DNA of 6,224 nt, from contig DAOVSY010000180.1 in NCBI GenBank assembly GCA_030633365.1, positions 1-6,224 on the forward strand, in the 5' to 3' direction. Shown here piece by piece: positions 1 to 6,119 of this stretch. The stretch comes from Spirochaetaceae bacterium (GTDB lineage Bacteria > Spirochaetota > Spirochaetia > B11-G9). Within the stretch, counting starts at the first letter, position 1, and the number at the start of each line of letters is the position of its first letter. Both the position numbers and the translations under genes were made by a program. The notes under the pieces are model-generated. The model saw nothing but the letters and a program-made list of their open reading frames with translations. It had not been told where the DNA came from and searched no databases.

Positions 1-569
1 TAACTGCTGTAAGAATGCCGGTTCCCTCTATTAGGACAATGAAACTACCGGTTCCGGAACCCGGCCAAGGGGTATACGGGCTGCTTCTTAATGCAAAGTG
101 TTATCCTGCTAAGGTGGGAGAATGGGTTGAAAACTTTTCGTCCCGGCACAATATTAGCTCTCTGCAGGTTAGGCCTCATCCAGGTTTTGATGTTGAAAAA
201 CTGTCAGTTATACCTAACTCATGTATCTGTGACTGGCATCAGCCTCTTGGTGAATATTTAGATGGTCTCGATCTGGTTTTTGCCCTTAATACAAATGCTG
301 TTATAGAAGCTCTGCTGCACGGTGTTCCTGTAGTATATCTGGGGGGCTTCGATCCCTATGAATACGATCTTCATCGTTTTGTGGCCAATGGCATCGCCTG
401 TCCCTATTTACCTTCAGACACTTTCCCCGAATCAGTTAGCAGTTTTTTCTTTTCCGAATCCTTTCGTGTAAAATGGAATCCCGGGGAATTTATTACTGAT
501 AATACTGAAGAGTCTGATCTCCTTACACAACTTACAGGAGCTGAGAATGATAACATTGCTAAGACGTAA
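1..569 (+). CDS. GT-B-like glycosyltransferase / capsule biosynthesis-like protein, C-terminal part (5' partial)
   Basis: The reading frame is open from base 3 to the TAA at 567-569. It has no stop upstream of the first ATG (base 15), and that ATG has no convincing ribosome binding site, so the gene very probably begins outside the window. Numbering from that ATG, residues 20-110 look like the C-terminal Rossmann domain of a GT-B enzyme: a strand GVYGLLLNAK, an RPHP motif (R53-P56), a segment LDLVFALNTNAVIEAL with E98 where such enzymes hold the nucleotide-sugar, then HGVPVVYLGG. RPHP plus a T/N-rich N-x-x-E-A motif is common in capsule-type and polysialyltransferase-like proteins. It probably transfers or processes a sugar in the cytoplasm for a surface glycan; donor and acceptor cannot be read. 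The 3' end overlaps the next gene by 23 bases. The class call is moderately sure, the exact family is not. Confidence 0.6.
   Translation, partial: TAVRMPVPSIRTMKLPVPEPGQGVYGLLLNAKCYPAKVGEWVENFSSRHNISSLQVRPHPGFDVEKLSVIPNSCICDWHQPLGEYLDGLDLVFALNTNAVIEALLHGVPVVYLGGFDPYEYDLHRFVANGIACPYLPSDTFPESVSSFFFSESFRVKWNPGEFITDNTEESDLLTQLTGAENDNIAKT
536..540 (+). promoter_or_regulatory. Ribosome binding site of the three-domain gene
   Basis: AGGAG lies six bases before the ATG at 547 and inside the coding sequence of the upstream gene. It supports the 547 start although this makes the two genes overlap by 23 bases, and it suggests coupled translation. Confidence 0.7.
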
Positions 570-2442
570 ACTTGGTGTAAGTAAACAATTACTAAAAAAC
601 CGACTACGTAAGAACCGTGGGAAACGCCGTTATATACACCCAAAGTTGGGAGTAGAAGGGTTTTTCAGGGAATTAAAGAAAAATGATATATCCTATTGTG
701 TTCTTAGATGGTTCGAGTCCCTTCCTCATGTGGAAGATGGAGAGGATATTGATATTCTTGTTGCAGATAAGGATATTCACCGTCTGGAACCGTTTTTAAC
801 AGGTGCAAAATCCTATGGAACTCCCTGTGATATCTATACATCAAGCGGCCTGCCTGGTACTTCATATCGTGGAATAGCATATTTTCCGGAACACCTGGCT
901 CAGGAACTTCTTGATACTGCTATCTGGCAGGATGATAAGATACTGGTTCCGGATCCCATGAGGCATCTGCTTTCCATGTCTTATCATGCTGCTTATCATA
1001 AGGGCTACGAGTCCGGAGTTCCTTCGGAAACCGGGAAAAGCCTTAAAGCAGAATCTCTGGATCATAACTATCCCCTTGTTCTTCAATCCTGTGCAGAAAA
1101 TGCTAAGATGAAACAACCGGAAATGACTTTGGAAGGTCTGGATCGATATCTTCAGGAAAATAACTGGAGTCCTGCCCGGGATGCTCTGGAAAAACTTTCT
1201 GCCCGTAATGAGTGGGTTCATGATCACTTTTTTTCTGATATTCCTGATCTGGAATCTTATTGGGATGGGTTTTCTGCATTTATTGTAAGGGAACAGGGGC
1301 TTGATCATCTTGATCTTGTTCGAAAAATGCTTTTTGAAGCTGGTTTCAATATTCTTTTTGAAAAAGAAATAGATGGAGATCAGAGGAAAGAAGCTGGTAA
1401 AAATCTTAGGGGGGGAAACTGGAATCGTGGGCCATGGCCTGTTAGTGGTGGCTTACCGGCATATCTGTTTGCTGTAAACGATTGTTTTCCAATTATCCCG
1501 GAAAAAAAACTGGCGGAAAAACATCCCGGACTGGTAAACAGTCGTCTTCTGGACACTAAAATTAGAATTCGTAATGCTGTGAATAGTCTAAAGACTCATC
1601 ATCAAAGGTCTAATGTCATTCACTCTGCAGATAATCCTCACCAGGGCTTGGAATATTTTCATACAGCAGTACCTGATTGTCCGGAATTTCCGAAAATAGA
1701 GAAGAAGCTTAAGAAAAATCAAAATAGTATGAAAAGCCCTTTCCCGGTAATTAAGACTCTGTCTGGTCATGGAAGGCGGGCAAAAGTAGAACTTATACAT
1801 TATAAAGATGGCAAAGCTGTATTAAAAACATATCGTCCCGGCAGAGAGCGTTTTTTAGAACGTGAGCTGATAGCCAGAAAGCTGGGAAAAGACCTTCCTG
1901 AAATGACTCCTGTTCTTGAACATGGAGAAAACTATCTTGTTCTTCCCTTTTACAATGATATTATGGATCGATCAAAACCTTTATCTTTCGGGGTAATTCG
2001 CAGAACCAGAAGTATGATCAGCCATTTTCGAAGTCTTGGTTTTGAACTTATTGACTTTAAACCAAAAAATATAATTCTTGATTCAAAAGATGGAATGAAA
2101 ATAATTGACTTCGAATTTCTTCAGGAGGGTGGAGTTAGTACAGAATCTCTTGCTGACAACTTCTGTTGGTATGCTGTTGGAAAAGATTTTAATGGTGATG
2201 TGCCTATGGGAAGAAAACTGCGCAGAAACAACTATTATCGATACTGGTTTGCGTCTACCGGAGTACCTCTCTTTTTTGCAGTACGAAAAATTCCTGATAT
2301 TTTACTATTTCCAATCAGATTATCCGGACAAACAGCTCTGTATTTCTATCATCTAACTGGTAAAATTAAACATATGTTTCGTACAATAAAAATTATATTA
2401 AAAAAATCTATAATATCAGTTTTGGGAAAAATTATTGGATAA
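547..2442 (+). CDS. Three-domain protein: nucleotidyltransferase-like, NDK-like, kinase-like fold
   Basis: This is a 631-residue soluble or membrane-peripheral protein with a very basic N-terminus (about residues 6-28). Residues 38-160 resemble uncharacterised nucleotidyltransferases: YCVLRWFESLP (50-60), then E66-D67-I-D69 as the likely metal-binding acidic pair, and YHAAYHKG (146-153) later. A mostly helical linker follows. Residues 242-375 resemble nucleoside diphosphate kinase: a first strand and helix ending in AGF, SGGLPAYLFAVND (300-312) like the NDK SGP strand, R340/R342, and N356-V-I-H359-S-A-D362 matching NDK N-x-x-H-G-S-D with the phospho-histidine kept. Residues 400-530 look like a protein-kinase fold: glycine-rich GHG (407-409), K427 in VLK, E440, the catalytic loop I-D503-F-K505-P-K-N508 and D521-F-E in place of DFG. 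The tail (560-631) is hydrophobic and basic and may contact the membrane. It probably modifies a sugar or glycan with phosphate or a nucleotide; the substrate is unknown. The kinase call is the safest, the NDK-like call is by eye. Confidence 0.72.
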   Translation: MITLLRRKLGVSKQLLKNRLRKNRGKRRYIHPKLGVEGFFRELKKNDISYCVLRWFESLPHVEDGEDIDILVADKDIHRLEPFLTGAKSYGTPCDIYTSSGLPGTSYRGIAYFPEHLAQELLDTAIWQDDKILVPDPMRHLLSMSYHAAYHKGYESGVPSETGKSLKAESLDHNYPLVLQSCAENAKMKQPEMTLEGLDRYLQENNWSPARDALEKLSARNEWVHDHFFSDIPDLESYWDGFSAFIVREQGLDHLDLVRKMLFEAGFNILFEKEIDGDQRKEAGKNLRGGNWNRGPWPVSGGLPAYLFAVNDCFPIIPEKKLAEKHPGLVNSRLLDTKIRIRNAVNSLKTHHQRSNVIHSADNPHQGLEYFHTAVPDCPEFPKIEKKLKKNQNSMKSPFPVIKTLSGHGRRAKVELIHYKDGKAVLKTYRPGRERFLERELIARKLGKDLPEMTPVLEHGENYLVLPFYNDIMDRSKPLSFGVIRRTRSMISHFRSLGFELIDFKPKNIILDSKDGMKIIDFEFLQEGGVSTESLADNFCWYAVGKDFNGDVPMGRKLRRNNYYRYWFASTGVPLFFAVRKIPDILLFPIRLSGQTALYFYHLTGKIKHMFRTIKIILKKSIISVLGKIIG

Positions 2443-2449
2443 AATAAAT

Positions 2450-3286
2450 ATGCAAAAAACACCAACAGTCTCTGTAATTATCCCCACATTCAAACGTCCA
2501 ACAGAACTTTTAAGAGCTGTTAACAGTGTTCTGGAACAGGACTATACAGATTTTGAAATCCTGGTAATTGATGATAATCCTCCGGAAAGTGAATATAGGG
2601 TTCAGACAGAATCGGTTCTTAAAAATCTTGATTCCAGAATTATCCATCTTAAAAACAGTAGTTCTCTTGGTGGTGCCGGAGCCAGAAATGCTGGCATAAA
2701 ATCAGCCCGGGGTTTGTATATTGCTTTTCTTGATGATGATGACGAGTGGCTGACTGGTAAACTTGGAAAGCAGATGAATCTTTTTCAAACTCTACCTAAG
2801 GAAGTCTGTAGTGTTGATACTGGTTTTTTTGAGATAGATGAACGTAGAAGCACAAAACGAGAGGTTCTTCCTGCTTTAAGGGGTGAAATTTTTGAAAATC
2901 TACTTGTTAAGCACAAAGGGAGGGCTCCCAAACTATCTTCCATGATATGCAGGACCGATGCACTTAGGAAAGTCGGGATGTTTGATCCCTCTCTTCCGTC
3001 AAGGCAGGATCTGGATCTATATCTGCGCCTGGCACGATTGTATAAATTTGAATATATTGCAGAACCCCTAATTAACAAGTTTATACATTCCTCAGGAAGA
3101 ATAAGCTCTGTAAGCAGTAATAAAATTCGTGGGTTTGAGATGCTTTATAAAAAGTACTATGATGATCTTCTTATACGCCCGGTTCTTCACCGTAAATATT
3201 TAAAACGTCATGCTTTCTGGCTTGCAAAGGGTGGAAAACTAATTCAGGCAGGTTCCAAGCTTTTAAAAAGTTTGATGGTACATTAA
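2450..3286 (+). CDS. Family 2 (GT-A) glycosyltransferase
   Basis: The protein has 278 residues from the ATG at 2450. The fold opens with VSVIIPTFKRP (7-17), reaches the nucleotide-binding acidic pair D41-D42 in LVIDDN, then GGAGARNAGIKSARG and the metal-binding cluster D95-D98 in FLDDDDEW. R185-Q-D187-L-D189 supplies the usual late catalytic-base region. These are the ordered motifs of family 2 inverting transferases, which move a sugar from a nucleotide-sugar to a lipid-linked or growing glycan on the cytoplasmic side. There is no membrane segment; the C-terminal 40 residues are basic and may bind membrane or partner enzymes. The start is uncertain: a TTG at 2435 would add five residues, overlap the upstream gene by eight bases and sits seven bases after GGGA. 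The ATG is preferred, but only GGA at 2437-2439 precedes it. The family is clear; donor and acceptor are not. Confidence 0.9.
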   Translation: MQKTPTVSVIIPTFKRPTELLRAVNSVLEQDYTDFEILVIDDNPPESEYRVQTESVLKNLDSRIIHLKNSSSLGGAGARNAGIKSARGLYIAFLDDDDEWLTGKLGKQMNLFQTLPKEVCSVDTGFFEIDERRSTKREVLPALRGEIFENLLVKHKGRAPKLSSMICRTDALRKVGMFDPSLPSRQDLDLYLRLARLYKFEYIAEPLINKFIHSSGRISSVSSNKIRGFEMLYKKYYDDLLIRPVLHRKYLKRHAFWLAKGGKLIQAGSKLLKSLMVH

Positions 3287-3289
3287 ATT

Positions 3290-4168
3290 ATGGTGAAGTT
3301 TAAACATTTTCTTCGTTCAATTCTGCGTAGCCATGGTTTTGATATTATAAAAACAGTTCATAAGAAAGGTATTGAACCTCCTCTTACAGAGTATATTGCC
3401 GATCAGCTATTTACTATTAATCAGGGAAAGATCCCTGCTCTTTCAGTTCCTGTAACAGACATTACCTGGGATAATGGTTTTTCTCTTCACCCAAATGGAT
3501 GGAACCCCTATTTGCAGACTGTCAAAGAGTATCTTTCCGGAACAGTTCAAAGTTACGGGGACTCCTCCCTATATTCATTTTATAATTCTTTTACTCCTGA
3601 ATCTGCAGGAGCCTATCTTTCTCCTGACCTTTCTTCCTCAGGACCTCTATCAAAAATATCAGCACATTCCTATATTCTCCCCTGGTCAACCTTAACACCT
3701 GAAGAACGTCTAAAATCGAGACAAATGCAGAACAGGGAAGAAGAAAAGCTTTCCTCTTCTATTTTTGGAAAAAGAAAGAAAATTAGTGGTATAAATAAAA
3801 TGGGACCTGTCTCTTTAGATAAAGGTCAGCTTGAGTTTAATCGACTTGTATATCTTGCAGATTCTATAAAAAAACAAGGATACAAACGCAGTCTTGTTAT
3901 GGATATAGAGGCTGTCGCTCTTCAATATAAGGATAGGATCCTTTATGTTATTTCTTCGGGTTTTCACAGATCTGCTGTTCTTACAGCTCTGGGACATAAA
4001 TCTATTCCCTTACTATTTAAGCCCCGGCTTATTGTAAATATGGATTTAATTTTACAGGGGCCTGCTGTTCGAAATGCCTACTGGACTAAGGCAGATGTTG
4101 AAATATACTTAAACTATCTTTTTACTGAAAAAGGTAAAGACCGTGCCCGTTCTATGGGTATATTATGA
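3290..4168 (+). CDS. Uncharacterised polysaccharide-cluster protein with ParB/sulfiredoxin-like G-x-H-R motif
   Basis: The protein has 292 residues and begins three bases after the previous stop; only a weak GATGG (3274-3278) precedes the ATG. The N-terminal 20 residues form a basic amphipathic helix ending in GFDII, a leader style often seen in sugar-cluster proteins such as FkbM-type methyltransferases, but no methyltransferase motif follows. Further on come LHPNGWNPY (66-74), an S/Y-rich segment with SLYSFYNSFTPE (93-104), ILPW (129-132), a charged linker, and GPVSLDKGQLEFNRL (172-186) before a helix. The end carries LYVISSGFHRSAVLTALG (218-235) followed by IPLLF. The G224-F-H226-R227 turn, helix A-x-x-x-L-G and following strand resemble the nucleotide-binding part of ParB or sulfiredoxin folds. 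The full family is not recognised. By position it serves the glycan pathway, perhaps as a modifying enzyme or nucleotide-dependent helper. The coding call is sure, the fold suggestion tentative. Confidence 0.75.
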   Translation: MVKFKHFLRSILRSHGFDIIKTVHKKGIEPPLTEYIADQLFTINQGKIPALSVPVTDITWDNGFSLHPNGWNPYLQTVKEYLSGTVQSYGDSSLYSFYNSFTPESAGAYLSPDLSSSGPLSKISAHSYILPWSTLTPEERLKSRQMQNREEEKLSSSIFGKRKKISGINKMGPVSLDKGQLEFNRLVYLADSIKKQGYKRSLVMDIEAVALQYKDRILYVISSGFHRSAVLTALGHKSIPLLFKPRLIVNMDLILQGPAVRNAYWTKADVEIYLNYLFTEKGKDRARSMGIL

Positions 4169-5367
4169 AAATTGCCTATATTACCAGTCAGTTTCCGGTT
4201 CCTTCGGAGACTTTTACTTCCGGAGATATTCTGGAGCTGCAGAAACAGGGGCATTCGATTTTTGCATTTGGGTTCCGACCGGACCACCCTAATATGGATG
4301 AGATGATATTACAGCGTGGTTTGCAATCTGTTCAAATTGAAAACTGTTCTTTTACAGGACAATTACATGGATTTTTCAGAATGATGATTTCTCCATGGTT
4401 AAGTATCCCTTTGTATTTCTGGCTATTAAAAAAAGAACTGGTACAACCGAAATTTCTTTTAAGGTCTCTTCTTCTTGTTCCGGCATTTTTTCATATTCTT
4501 GTCCTCCTTAAACGATTTAAACCAGATCTGATTCATCTTTTCTGGGGACATTATCCAAGTATTCTTGGTTTTCTTATTAAACGTTCAATGCCCAATATCC
4601 CCTTATCTATGTTTCTGGGTGCCCACGATCTGACTGCAAAAATGAATATAAGTTCTTTTATGGGTAAAAAGGCAGATTTTTTGTTTACCCATGCCCGGGC
4701 AAATTTACCACTACTTGAAGAGATGGGGATTCCCGGATCCTCTGTTACTGTGGCTCGTCGGGGTATTGATACTGGAGCTTTGGATAAAATTCTTTCTGAG
4801 CAGACCGATAAATCAGATTCTAAACTAATTCTTTCTGTTGGTCGTCTTCAATCTTATAAAGGGTTTGATGACACCCTTCGTATATTTTCTATACTCCTAA
4901 AGAATCATAAAGATCTTAAACTTGGAATCCTTGGGGAAGGTCCGGAAAAGAATAATCTTGTTCGTTTAGCCGAAGAGCTCAAGGTTAGAGATTCAGTTCT
5001 TTTTTATGGTCATCTTCCTCATAATGAGGTCATTCAATTAATGGCCGAATCCCGGCTTTTTTTGTTTATGTCCAGACACAATGGTGAACGTCTTCCAAAT
5101 GTAGTAAAAGAAGCTATGTTTTGTAAATGTATCTGTATAAGTTCAGATACAGTTGGAATTGAAGAGCTTATTGATCATGGAGAAAACGGATTTATTGTTC
5201 CAAAAAAAGATATTACCGCAGCAGCTTCTCTTGCTGATTCGGTTTTTTCCAGTAAGTTTCCGGATATACCCGGGGCCGCAAGGGATAAAATAATTAAAGA
5301 ATTTTCCAGATCTAAATCTATTCAATGTTACCTTGATAAATGGTTTCCCGGGGAGTCCTCTTCATGA
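4165..5367 (+). CDS. Family 4 (GT-B) glycosyltransferase
   Basis: The protein has 400 residues, the usual GT4 length, and starts in the ATGA that holds the stop of the previous gene. The N-terminal domain opens with MKIAYITSQFPVPSETF, the signature opening of WcaL/AmsK-like exopolysaccharide transferases, and contains a long hydrophobic, basic stretch (about 75-118) that probably lies on the membrane. H154 in GAHDL is the expected acceptor-side histidine. The C-terminal domain has VARRGID (196-202), SVGRL with R227, K232 in SYKGFDD, LGEGPEK, and E308-x7-E316 in the segment GERLPNVVKEAM, the retaining-GT4 donor-binding motif. It should transfer a sugar from a nucleotide donor with retention of configuration to a lipid-linked glycan at the cytoplasmic membrane face. 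The sugar is unknown. Weak GGG (4156-4158) precedes the start, so translation probably depends on coupling. Confidence 0.92.
   Translation: MKIAYITSQFPVPSETFTSGDILELQKQGHSIFAFGFRPDHPNMDEMILQRGLQSVQIENCSFTGQLHGFFRMMISPWLSIPLYFWLLKKELVQPKFLLRSLLLVPAFFHILVLLKRFKPDLIHLFWGHYPSILGFLIKRSMPNIPLSMFLGAHDLTAKMNISSFMGKKADFLFTHARANLPLLEEMGIPGSSVTVARRGIDTGALDKILSEQTDKSDSKLILSVGRLQSYKGFDDTLRIFSILLKNHKDLKLGILGEGPEKNNLVRLAEELKVRDSVLFYGHLPHNEVIQLMAESRLFLFMSRHNGERLPNVVKEAMFCKCICISSDTVGIEELIDHGENGFIVPKKDITAAASLADSVFSSKFPDIPGAARDKIIKEFSRSKSIQCYLDKWFPGESSS
5350..5355 (+). promoter_or_regulatory. Ribosome binding site deciding the start of the last glycosyltransferase
   Basis: GGGGAG ends eight bases before the ATG at 5364, which itself overlaps the upstream TGA as ATGA. 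This favours 5364 over the in-frame ATG at 5340, which would add eight residues and lacks such a site. Confidence 0.7.
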
Positions 5368-6119
5368 AAACGAAACAACCCATGGTCTCTGTAGTTACGG
5401 CTCTGTATAACTCAGCAGCTTTTATTGGAAATACTATAGAAAGTGTATTAGCCCAGAGTTTTACAGATTGGGAAATGATAATTGTAGATGATTGTTCTAC
5501 GGATAATTCTGCAGAAATTGCAGCAGGTTATAGAGAAAAAGATTCACGAATTATTATAATTAGTCTGGAAGAGAATAGTGGTGCTGCAGTTTCACGAAAT
5601 AAGGCTATTGAAGCAGCTAAAGGGAGATATATAGCCTTTTTGGACAGTGATGACCGATGGCACCCTCAAAAACTGGAAAAGCAGCTTGCCTTTATGCAGA
5701 AAAGACACTTCTCTTTTACTCATACCTGGTATGAAAAGTATAATGAAGCAGGGAAGTCTCTTGGAGCTATAGTTACTCCTCCGGAAAGTATGAACTATAA
5801 AAGTTTGTTAAAGTCTAATCGTATTGGATGTCTTACTGTAATTTATGATACTGAAAAATTGGGTAAGGTCTATATGCCCCTAATCCGAAAGCGTCAGGAT
5901 TATGGTTTATGGTTGAAAATATTGAAAAAAGATATAATTATCCATGTTTTTCCGGAGAATATGGCCCTTTATAGGGTCAGATCCGGATCAATATCTGAAA
6001 ATAAACTGGAGATGGTTAAATACAATTGGATGCTTTACCGGAAAGTAGAAAAATTTAGTTTAATTAAGTCAGCCTACTATCTTTCCTGGAATGTATTTCG
6101 TAAACTTAGAAAAGGTTAA
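5364..6119 (+). CDS. Family 2 (GT-A) glycosyltransferase, TuaG-like
   Basis: The protein has 251 residues, close to the usual length of TuaG-type enzymes (TuaG belongs to teichuronic acid synthesis in Bacillus). The motifs are in order: VSVVTALYNSAAFI (8-21), D42-D43 in IIVDDCSTDNS, NSGAAVSRNKAIEAAKG, the metal-binding D94-S-D96-D97 in FLDSDDRW, then a substrate-side region with IGCLTVIYD and R175-K-R177-Q-D179-YGLWLKIL, which is especially TuaG-like. It should add one sugar from a nucleotide donor to a growing surface glycan in the cytoplasm. The likeness to TuaG is in the protein family; a teichuronic acid product is not implied, as no tua neighbours are seen. It is the second family 2 enzyme in this operon but differs clearly from the first after the DxD motif, so the two probably make different linkages. 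Its last 30 residues are basic with aromatic patches. It is the last gene before the AT-rich spacer. Confidence 0.92.
   Translation: MKTKQPMVSVVTALYNSAAFIGNTIESVLAQSFTDWEMIIVDDCSTDNSAEIAAGYREKDSRIIIISLEENSGAAVSRNKAIEAAKGRYIAFLDSDDRWHPQKLEKQLAFMQKRHFSFTHTWYEKYNEAGKSLGAIVTPPESMNYKSLLKSNRIGCLTVIYDTEKLGKVYMPLIRKRQDYGLWLKILKKDIIIHVFPENMALYRVRSGSISENKLEMVKYNWMLYRKVEKFSLIKSAYYLSWNVFRKLRKG

What the first reader, a model, noticed from the sequence alone, without database searches (positions are those of the whole stretch)
547..2442. One polypeptide joining nucleotidyltransferase-like, NDK-like and protein-kinase-like domains
Seen: E66-D67-I-D69 after a YCVLRWFESLP strand; N356-V-I-H359-S-A-D362; and K427, E440, D503, K505, N508 and D521 in kinase order. 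Three different phosphoryl or nucleotidyl transfer folds in one protein within a glycosyltransferase operon is an arrangement I do not recognise as described. Inference: it may be a self-contained machine that adds a phosphate or nucleotide group to a sugar or glycan, with one domain feeding the next.
Basis: partly seen in the sequence, partly recalled or inferred. Interest (0 to 1): 0.75.

Follow-up and report, generated by a model that had tools for sequence, protein, structure and literature searches.

The report
Three-part phosphate-transfer enzyme, surface sugar operon
A bacterial gene in a surface-sugar operon encodes one protein that joins a nucleotide-transfer domain, a divergent nucleoside-diphosphate-kinase domain and a kinase domain; relatives occur in many bacterial phyla, and the protein may add a phosphate-linked group to a surface polysaccharide.

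The parts
547..2442 (+). 631-aa three-domain protein; Shine-Dalgarno-like AGGAG at 536-540
   Evidence: homologues; dN/dS 0.108 against L001
628..1239 (+). Nucleotidyltransferase-like domain, residues 28-231 (PF14907-like)
   Evidence: Pfam PF14907 in 33 of 57 homologous segments at E up to 1, best 5.3e-4, none for the window's own; hhalign E 1.2e-5, probability 81, against five PF14907 matches
742..753 (+). E66-D67-I-D69; D67 and D69 the first two metal-binding carboxylates (inferred)
   Evidence: aligned with D-h-D of the PF14907 set
829..831 (+). D95, probable third carboxylate
   Evidence: D in 176 of 193 rows; on the strand after the EDID strand
1252..1701 (+). NDK-like domain, residues 236-385
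1612..1632 (+). N356-V-I-H359-S-A-D362, counterpart of the NDK active-site strand; H359 the presumed phosphohistidine
   Evidence: N 190, H 189, D 190 of 193 rows, the rest gaps but for one Q
1738..2226 (+). Protein-kinase-fold domain, residues 398-560
2107..2115 (+). D521-F-E523, D-F-E in place of D-F-G
   Evidence: E523 is E in 184 of 193 rows, 8 gaps, 1 A
2296..2436 (+). Basic C-terminal helix, residues 584-630; possible membrane contact
   Evidence: Helix in the model; net charge +7 here, family tails median +9 in 156 rows; amphipathicity not significant (92 of 1000 shuffles as high)
3..569 (+). Upstream ORF (5' part outside the window), distantly like TIGR04326 surface carbohydrate proteins; overlaps the gene by 23 bases
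   Evidence: NCBIfam E 3.4e-5, 22.4 bits against a cut-off of 250
2435..3286 (+). GT2 glycosyltransferase of the operon
   Evidence: Pfam E 1.5e-29
4165..5367 (+). Group 1 glycosyltransferase of the operon
   Evidence: Pfam E 2.1e-34
5364..6119 (+). GT2 glycosyltransferase of the operon
   Evidence: Pfam E 1.4e-38

Best explanation
It is a cytosolic, probably membrane-peripheral enzyme of surface-polysaccharide assembly built around a divergent NDK domain. Shown: three domains (PF14907-like nucleotidyltransferase by sequence profile, NDK fold, protein-kinase fold) kept together across phyla, with their catalytic residues conserved and the NDK site most of all. Inferred: H359 takes the gamma-phosphate of an NTP as phosphohistidine and passes it to a bound diphosphate (an NDP or a similar compound), making an activated donor on the spot. 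The neighbouring nucleotidyltransferase domain (D67, D69, D95, two metals) then transfers the alpha-phosphate part of that donor to a hydroxyl or phosphate of a glycan, giving a phosphodiester-linked substituent. The C-terminal kinase phosphorylates the acceptor sugar or the small alcohol to be attached. NT plus NDK is the minimal unit seen; the kinase can be missing.
For: Fold and family evidence for the domains. Of 186 homologue rows covering NT and NDK, the NDK site is broken in 1, the NT motif in 13, the kinase broken or absent in 20 (a changed N508 counts as broken); dN/dS between the window gene and L001 is 0.018 for NDK, 0.079 NT, 0.163 kinase, 0.234 C-terminus. All three parts in 75 of 81 NDK-bearing ORFs from 80 loci, NT+NDK without kinase in the other 6, one of them at a contig end. 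Two of four Halomonadaceae loci with a broken NT motif carry an intact stand-alone NT gene directly downstream. The three kinase-less Planococcus-type loci carry an APH-fold kinase gene four genes further on, with no relative among the other loci's ORFs. Neighbours on the same strand are glycosyltransferases, sugar epimerases and flippases; two homologues are fused to TPR + GT41 + FkbM methyltransferase. General knowledge: NDKs make triphosphates and pol-beta-type nucleotidyltransferases use them with release of pyrophosphate.
Against: No substrate, product or order was tested. Lys12 of NDKs is Arg here (R248), the Kpn-loop stretch is modelled as a helix (332-347), and the NDK glutamate after the active site (Glu129; NDK numbering recalled) is Y370, so nucleotide binding may differ. 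The NT fold was not confirmed by structure comparison. NT motif loss in L027, L069 and L078, with no stand-alone NT in the fetched stretch, means NT activity is not always needed; L067 and L075 lack the kinase and I noticed no substitute. PF14907 itself has no activity that I could find. Ordinary NDK is present in 9 of 10 host genomes tested, so making an NTP is not in itself missing there; but of three spirochaete carriers two (G002, G044) show none, which would fit the recycling rival as well.
Confidence: 0.38

Rival explanations
1. Chain terminator or end-capper that works like WbdD: the kinase phosphorylates the growing glycan's end and the other domains cap that phosphate (with a nucleotide or phospho-group instead of WbdD's methyl group).
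For: WbdD is a methyltransferase-kinase fusion that phosphorylates and then methylates the non-reducing end (abstract of PMC3482155); another methyltransferase-kinase terminates the Klebsiella O7 antigen (abstract and headings of PMC11231755). Two family members are fused to an FkbM methyltransferase.
Against: Flippase families (Polysacc_synt, 9 of 98 scanned neighbours) are common and no ABC transporter is among the 25 families shown of 65, whereas WbdD belongs to an ABC-transporter pathway; the kinase is absent or broken in 20 of 186 members. A coiled-coil ruler was not tested for.
Confidence: 0.2
2. Local nucleotide recycling: the NDK domain recharges UDP/CDP released by the operon's glycosyltransferases and CMP-sugar enzymes; NT and kinase parts are regulatory or attach the enzyme.
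For: NDK residues are the best conserved; the L001 cluster holds NeuB-like and CMP-transferase-like genes and several glycosyltransferases; two of three spirochaete carriers show no ordinary NDK, against 26 of 78 overall, a difference chance gives with probability 0.26.
Against: Ordinary NDK is present in 9 of 10 host genomes from several phyla; recycling does not explain why NT (173 of 186) and kinase (166 of 186) catalytic residues are kept, nor the stand-alone NT genes.
Confidence: 0.15
3. LicA/LicD-like decoration: kinase phosphorylates a small alcohol, the NT-fold domain passes the phospho-alcohol to the glycan, and the NDK domain supplies or activates the carrier.
For: NT-fold enzymes can transfer phospho-alcohols from CDP-alcohols (FKRP; passages of PMC11646218); bacterial LicA choline kinase has a protein-kinase-like fold (abstract start in the listing); D-F-E is the choline-kinase form (recalled); CDP-glycerol transferase PF04464 was matched by 3 of 98 neighbour ORFs; the extra kinase in the Planococcus-type loci is APH/choline-kinase-like.
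Against: No cytidylyltransferase domain found in the window protein; NT segments match PF14907, and LicD is not among the 18 families they match.
Confidence: 0.17
4. The protein is regulatory: a Hanks-type kinase with nucleotide-sensing partner domains that controls polysaccharide synthesis.
For: Kinase fold resembles protein kinases.
Against: The catalytic-loop lysine position (505) is variable and D-F-G is D-F-E; the conserved segment before K427 reads R-R-A-K rather than a glycine-rich loop (by eye); the NDK site, not the kinase, is the most conserved.
Confidence: 0.08

Closest known systems
Nucleoside diphosphate kinases (PF00334)
   Same: NDK fold, N-x-x-H-x-x-D active-site strand, counterpart of Arg105 (R342) and an aromatic residue in place of Phe60 (W292) by profile alignment (NDK numbers recalled)
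   Different: 8-16% identity in the NDK rows of the structure alignments; Lys12 is Arg; Kpn-loop stretch modelled as a helix; part of a fusion; window protein has no Pfam NDK match
NTP_transf_5, PF14907 nucleotidyltransferases
   Same: D-h-D strand, third-carboxylate strand and histidine-bearing helix in the same order
   Different: R-W replaces the K-G before the motif (by eye); weak similarity; fused to NDK and kinase
WbdD (E. coli O9a kinase-methyltransferase chain terminator)
   Same: Kinase fused to another group-transfer domain in polysaccharide assembly (abstract)
   Different: The abstract names methyltransferase, kinase and coiled coil, no NDK or NT; here a clear methyltransferase domain was found only in L071 and L072
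LanKC kinase domains, Rio2, CK2
   Same: Protein-kinase fold, among the best structural matches
   Different: No lyase or cyclase found; different partner domains; variable residue in place of the catalytic-loop Lys
LicA/LicD phosphocholine decoration; FKRP
   Same: Kinase plus NT-fold transferase acting on glycans
   Different: Separate proteins with a cytidylyltransferase step (recalled); no NDK

Membership tests
Nucleoside diphosphate kinase (PF00334) | NDK fold | tested here: met
Nucleoside diphosphate kinase (PF00334) | Active-site histidine in N-x-x-H-x-x-D | tested here: met
   H359 in 189 of 190 rows that cover it
Nucleoside diphosphate kinase (PF00334) | Lys12, Tyr52, Arg88, Thr94, Glu129 of the nucleotide site (recalled numbering) | tested here: inconclusive
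   Lys12 column is Arg in all 187 covered rows; Glu129 column is Tyr in 184 of 193; the others not placed reliably
Nucleoside diphosphate kinase (PF00334) | Pfam gathering score (27 bits) | tested here: not met
   Window protein and its central segment give no NDK match; of nine other segments scanned one by one, five match (best 25.8 bits, L012) and four do not at E 0.01. Best E among the 55 is 2.5e-8 (member and bit score not shown)
Nucleoside diphosphate kinase (PF00334) | NTP:NDP phosphotransferase activity | not testable with these tools
   Needs an assay
NTP_transf_5 (PF14907) | Sequence similarity over the core | tested here: inconclusive
   33 of 57 segments at E up to 1, best 5.3e-4, bit score not shown; none for the window's own segment. 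hhalign E 1.2e-5 over 110 columns, against 0.033 for an NDK set
NTP_transf_5 (PF14907) | Acidic D-h-D and a third carboxylate | tested here: met
   D67, D69, D95
NTP_transf_5 (PF14907) | NT fold by structure comparison | tested here: inconclusive
   NDK hits filled the PDB lists; among viral predictions a LicD protein (E 1.4e-2) and some nucleotidyltransferases appear, all weak
Protein-kinase superfamily | Fold, VAIK-type Lys, alpha-C Glu, catalytic Asp, Asn, D-F-x Asp | tested here: met
Hanks-type Ser/Thr protein kinase | Catalytic-loop Lys and D-F-G | tested here: not met
   Window has K505 but the position is variable in the family; D-F-E
WbdD-type chain terminator | Methyltransferase domain joined to the kinase | tested here: not met
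   No Pfam methyltransferase in the window protein; FkbM in L071, L072; the N-terminal extension of longer members matches no methyltransferase family (22 rows), apart from one weak Methyltransf_23 hit, E 0.0085, in L032

The most novel reading that the evidence does not exclude
A complete phospho-decoration pathway in one chain using a route not seen before: the kinase makes X-P from a small alcohol or sugar X, the NDK domain extends it through phosphohistidine to X-PP (or X-PPP), and the nucleotidyltransferase domain moves X-P onto the polysaccharide. The NDK would replace the cytidylyltransferase step (LicC-like), so no CDP-X carrier is needed. This would be an NDK-fold domain acting on non-nucleotide diphosphates in glycan assembly.
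Probability: 0.12. Interest if true: 0.87.

Novelty: new variant of a known kind. Interest (0 to 1): 0.64.

Why it matters
NDKs are known mainly as housekeeping enzymes. A conserved, widespread NDK-fold domain built into a surface-glycan enzyme together with a nucleotidyltransferase and a kinase would add a role for that fold, would give a possible function for PF14907-like nucleotidyltransferases (no paper found under that name), and would point to an unknown phosphate-linked glycan modification in Halomonas, Planococcus, spirochaetes and others. Where one search shows a source's name for a family member (most rows have none), it is 'hypothetical protein' or a protein kinase.

Tried and rejected
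Chance motif matches: rejected, because the residues are conserved across phyla and the structure agrees. Fortuitous ORF: rejected (dN/dS 0.108; full-length homologues). Viral origin: a scan of viral contigs with A5 gave 20 pattern matches and no confirmed relative; no match in the plasmid collection. N-terminal extension of the long members as a methyltransferase: it looks Rossmann-like to me (A7), but none of the 14 Pfam families matched, each in one of 22 rows, is a methyltransferase, and six of the seven PDB profile hits are designed TIM barrels, so left open. Mutual exclusion of NT and kinase loss (no member with both): not significant, Fisher p 0.37. Amphipathic C-terminal helix: 92 of 1000 shuffles as high, so only the basic charge is claimed. 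Replacement of a missing host NDK: two of three spirochaete carriers (G002, G044) show no PF00334 match, but so do 26 of 78 spirochaete genomes (probability 0.26), so no link claimed. NT profile against PDB sequences found nothing relevant. hhalign E-values are for a single comparison and lenient: the unrelated pair kinase-NDK gave 0.0081 over 19 columns. The first NDK hhalign, with the A2 sub-alignment, was weak (E 6.2e-4, probability 28); the broader A3 gave 8.7e-7, probability 91.5. Split NT and NDK in planctomycetes: small NDK-like proteins exist (P0121, P0124) but I could not fetch their neighbourhoods; a class search around G260 gave 4 of 397 genomes, all in frames of 539-883 aa.

Literature: open PMC papers were searched for the architecture; no paper listed describes it, judged from titles and abstract starts (one search showed 10 of 260; two searches found none). 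Searches were for WbdD and LicD-type enzymes. Subscription papers and preprints are not held. Read: abstracts and outlines of PMC3482155 and PMC11231755, passages of PMC11646218; all others only as search listings.
Full report
What is there. ORF 547-2442 encodes 631 residues. It overlaps the upstream ORF by 23 bases and the downstream GT2 ORF, if that starts at TTG 2435, by 8, and lies among glycosyltransferases. The nearest genome locus, L001 from a Spirochaetaceae MAG, encodes a 91% identical protein; a partial protein named Spirochaetales is 98% identical over 58%. In L001 the genes before it are a Capsule_synth protein (PF05159), a NeuB-like synthase, a cytidylyltransferase-HAD phosphatase resembling PseF plus KDN-9-phosphatase (most of these NCBIfam scores lie under the curated cut-offs), and the distantly TIGR04326-like protein seen at the window's start; a phytase-like protein and an exopolysaccharide sugar-phosphate transferase follow further on. 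Candidatus Marispirochaeta (L002) keeps the same core order by eye. So the operon makes a surface polysaccharide, perhaps with a nonulosonic acid.

Conservation. In 193 rows (120 database proteins plus 73 locus ORFs, overlapping sets), R248, W292, K338, R342, N356 and D362 do not change where covered; H359 is H in 189, Q in one Limibaculum copy. Limibaculum (L013) has two copies: one with H359Q and an intact NT motif, the other with an altered NT motif (RSxD) and an intact NDK site. Of 186 rows covering NT and NDK, the NDK site is broken in 1, NT in 13, kinase broken or absent in 20 (6 absent); after thinning at 90% identity, 1, 11 and 18 of 159. The kinase count is strict: a changed N508 alone counts. 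dN/dS between window and L001 is lowest in NDK (0.018). Two caveats: the genome scan's peptide patterns lie in NDK and NT and none in the kinase, and K505 is not conserved.

Distribution and arrangement. The scan of genome contigs confirmed 110 relatives, of which 80 loci were kept, many from close relatives such as Planococcus. In these, 75 ORFs are NT-NDK-KIN and 6 NT-NDK (one cut by a contig end); 33 of the 75 have 120 or more residues before NT, counted from the first Met of the open frame and so an upper estimate. The tree of 55 NT-NDK rows holds 12 named phyla with 18 label changes, against 34.9 in shuffles and a minimum of 11: clustered but not simply vertical. Within the spirochaete class 3 of 248 genomes have it, in the class of G260 4 of 397, and for the NT profile in the family of G262 10 of 250, two of them weak. 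It is rare and patchy, as surface-polysaccharide genes often are.

Parts apart. In Billgrantia ethanolica (L015) and Halomonas alkalisoli (L016) the fused protein has lost D69 (V or I) and an intact stand-alone NT gene follows directly; in L027 and L069, also with broken motifs, no second NT was seen in the fetched stretch. Stand-alone NT-like proteins were also found in the protein database (23 hits, some of them fragments or longer proteins), and a few NDK-only ones (5 hits, some fragments). In three related Planococcus-type loci (L076, L077, L079) the protein lacks the kinase, and the fourth gene downstream is an APH/choline-kinase-like gene (Pfam E 1.7e-7 in L076) with no relative by phmmer among the other loci's ORFs; this is one lineage, and I did not look for unrelated kinases beside full-length members, so it is only suggestive. 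L067 and L075 lack the kinase with no substitute noticed. In L071 and L072 the trio is the C-terminus of 1945- and 1812-aa proteins with TPR, GT41 (OGT-like) and FkbM methyltransferase domains, the best single hint that the substrate is a glycan or glycosylated protein.

How it may work. NDKs move a gamma-phosphate through a histidine to make a triphosphate; pol-beta-type nucleotidyltransferases use triphosphates and attach the alpha-phosphate part to a hydroxyl (general knowledge). With the two side by side, and NT-NDK as the minimal unit, the simplest scheme is that NDK makes the donor that NT transfers. The kinase would prime acceptor or substituent. NT-fold enzymes that transfer phospho-alcohols are known (FKRP; passages of PMC11646218), so the group moved need not be a nucleotide. 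None of these steps was tested. The basic C-terminal tail (net charge median +9 in 156 family tails) suggests membrane contact.

Known or not. WbdD joins a kinase to a methyltransferase in O-antigen termination (PMC3482155 abstract), and Klebsiella O7 uses a further methyltransferase-kinase (PMC11231755 abstract). Five answered searches aimed at the architecture listed no paper that describes an NDK domain in this setting. I file it as a new variant of multi-domain glycan-phosphorylating enzymes; the NDK partner is the new element.

Noticed in passing
window 3290-4168: 292-aa ORF without a Pfam match and with only a weak NCBIfam hit (E 0.16), similar by eye to L001 7707-8582; its C-terminal G-x-H-R stretch looks ParB/sulfiredoxin-like and PHROGs gives a weak ParB hit (E 0.068).
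   Followed up: partly
L013 2832-4718 and 9602-11731: Limibaculum has two copies with complementary damage: H359Q in one, altered NT motif in the other.
   Followed up: partly
L071 5891-11725; L072 6359-11794: 1945- and 1812-aa proteins joining TPR, GT41, FkbM methyltransferase, NT, NDK and kinase.
   Followed up: partly
G001:C257 (L090, L094) and other spirochaete genomes: About 400-aa spirochaete frames with an NDK domain matched in two pieces (profile about 1-51 and 69-129) and, in some, a weak further copy.
   Followed up: no
L001 10529-11581; L002 12769-13839: Phytase-like protein (PF02333 in L001, E 3.4e-37; L002 similar by eye) after the same operon in both spirochaetes.
   Followed up: no
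class search of spirochaetes: 26 of 78 spirochaete genomes have no PF00334 match at E 0.001, among them two of the three carriers of this family, G002 and G044.
   Followed up: partly
N-terminal extensions, A7 (22 rows): Partly conserved module (R-I-L-E, Y-L-G, N-N-A-D-V-L-I-L in the consensus) of unknown family in the longer members.
   Followed up: partly
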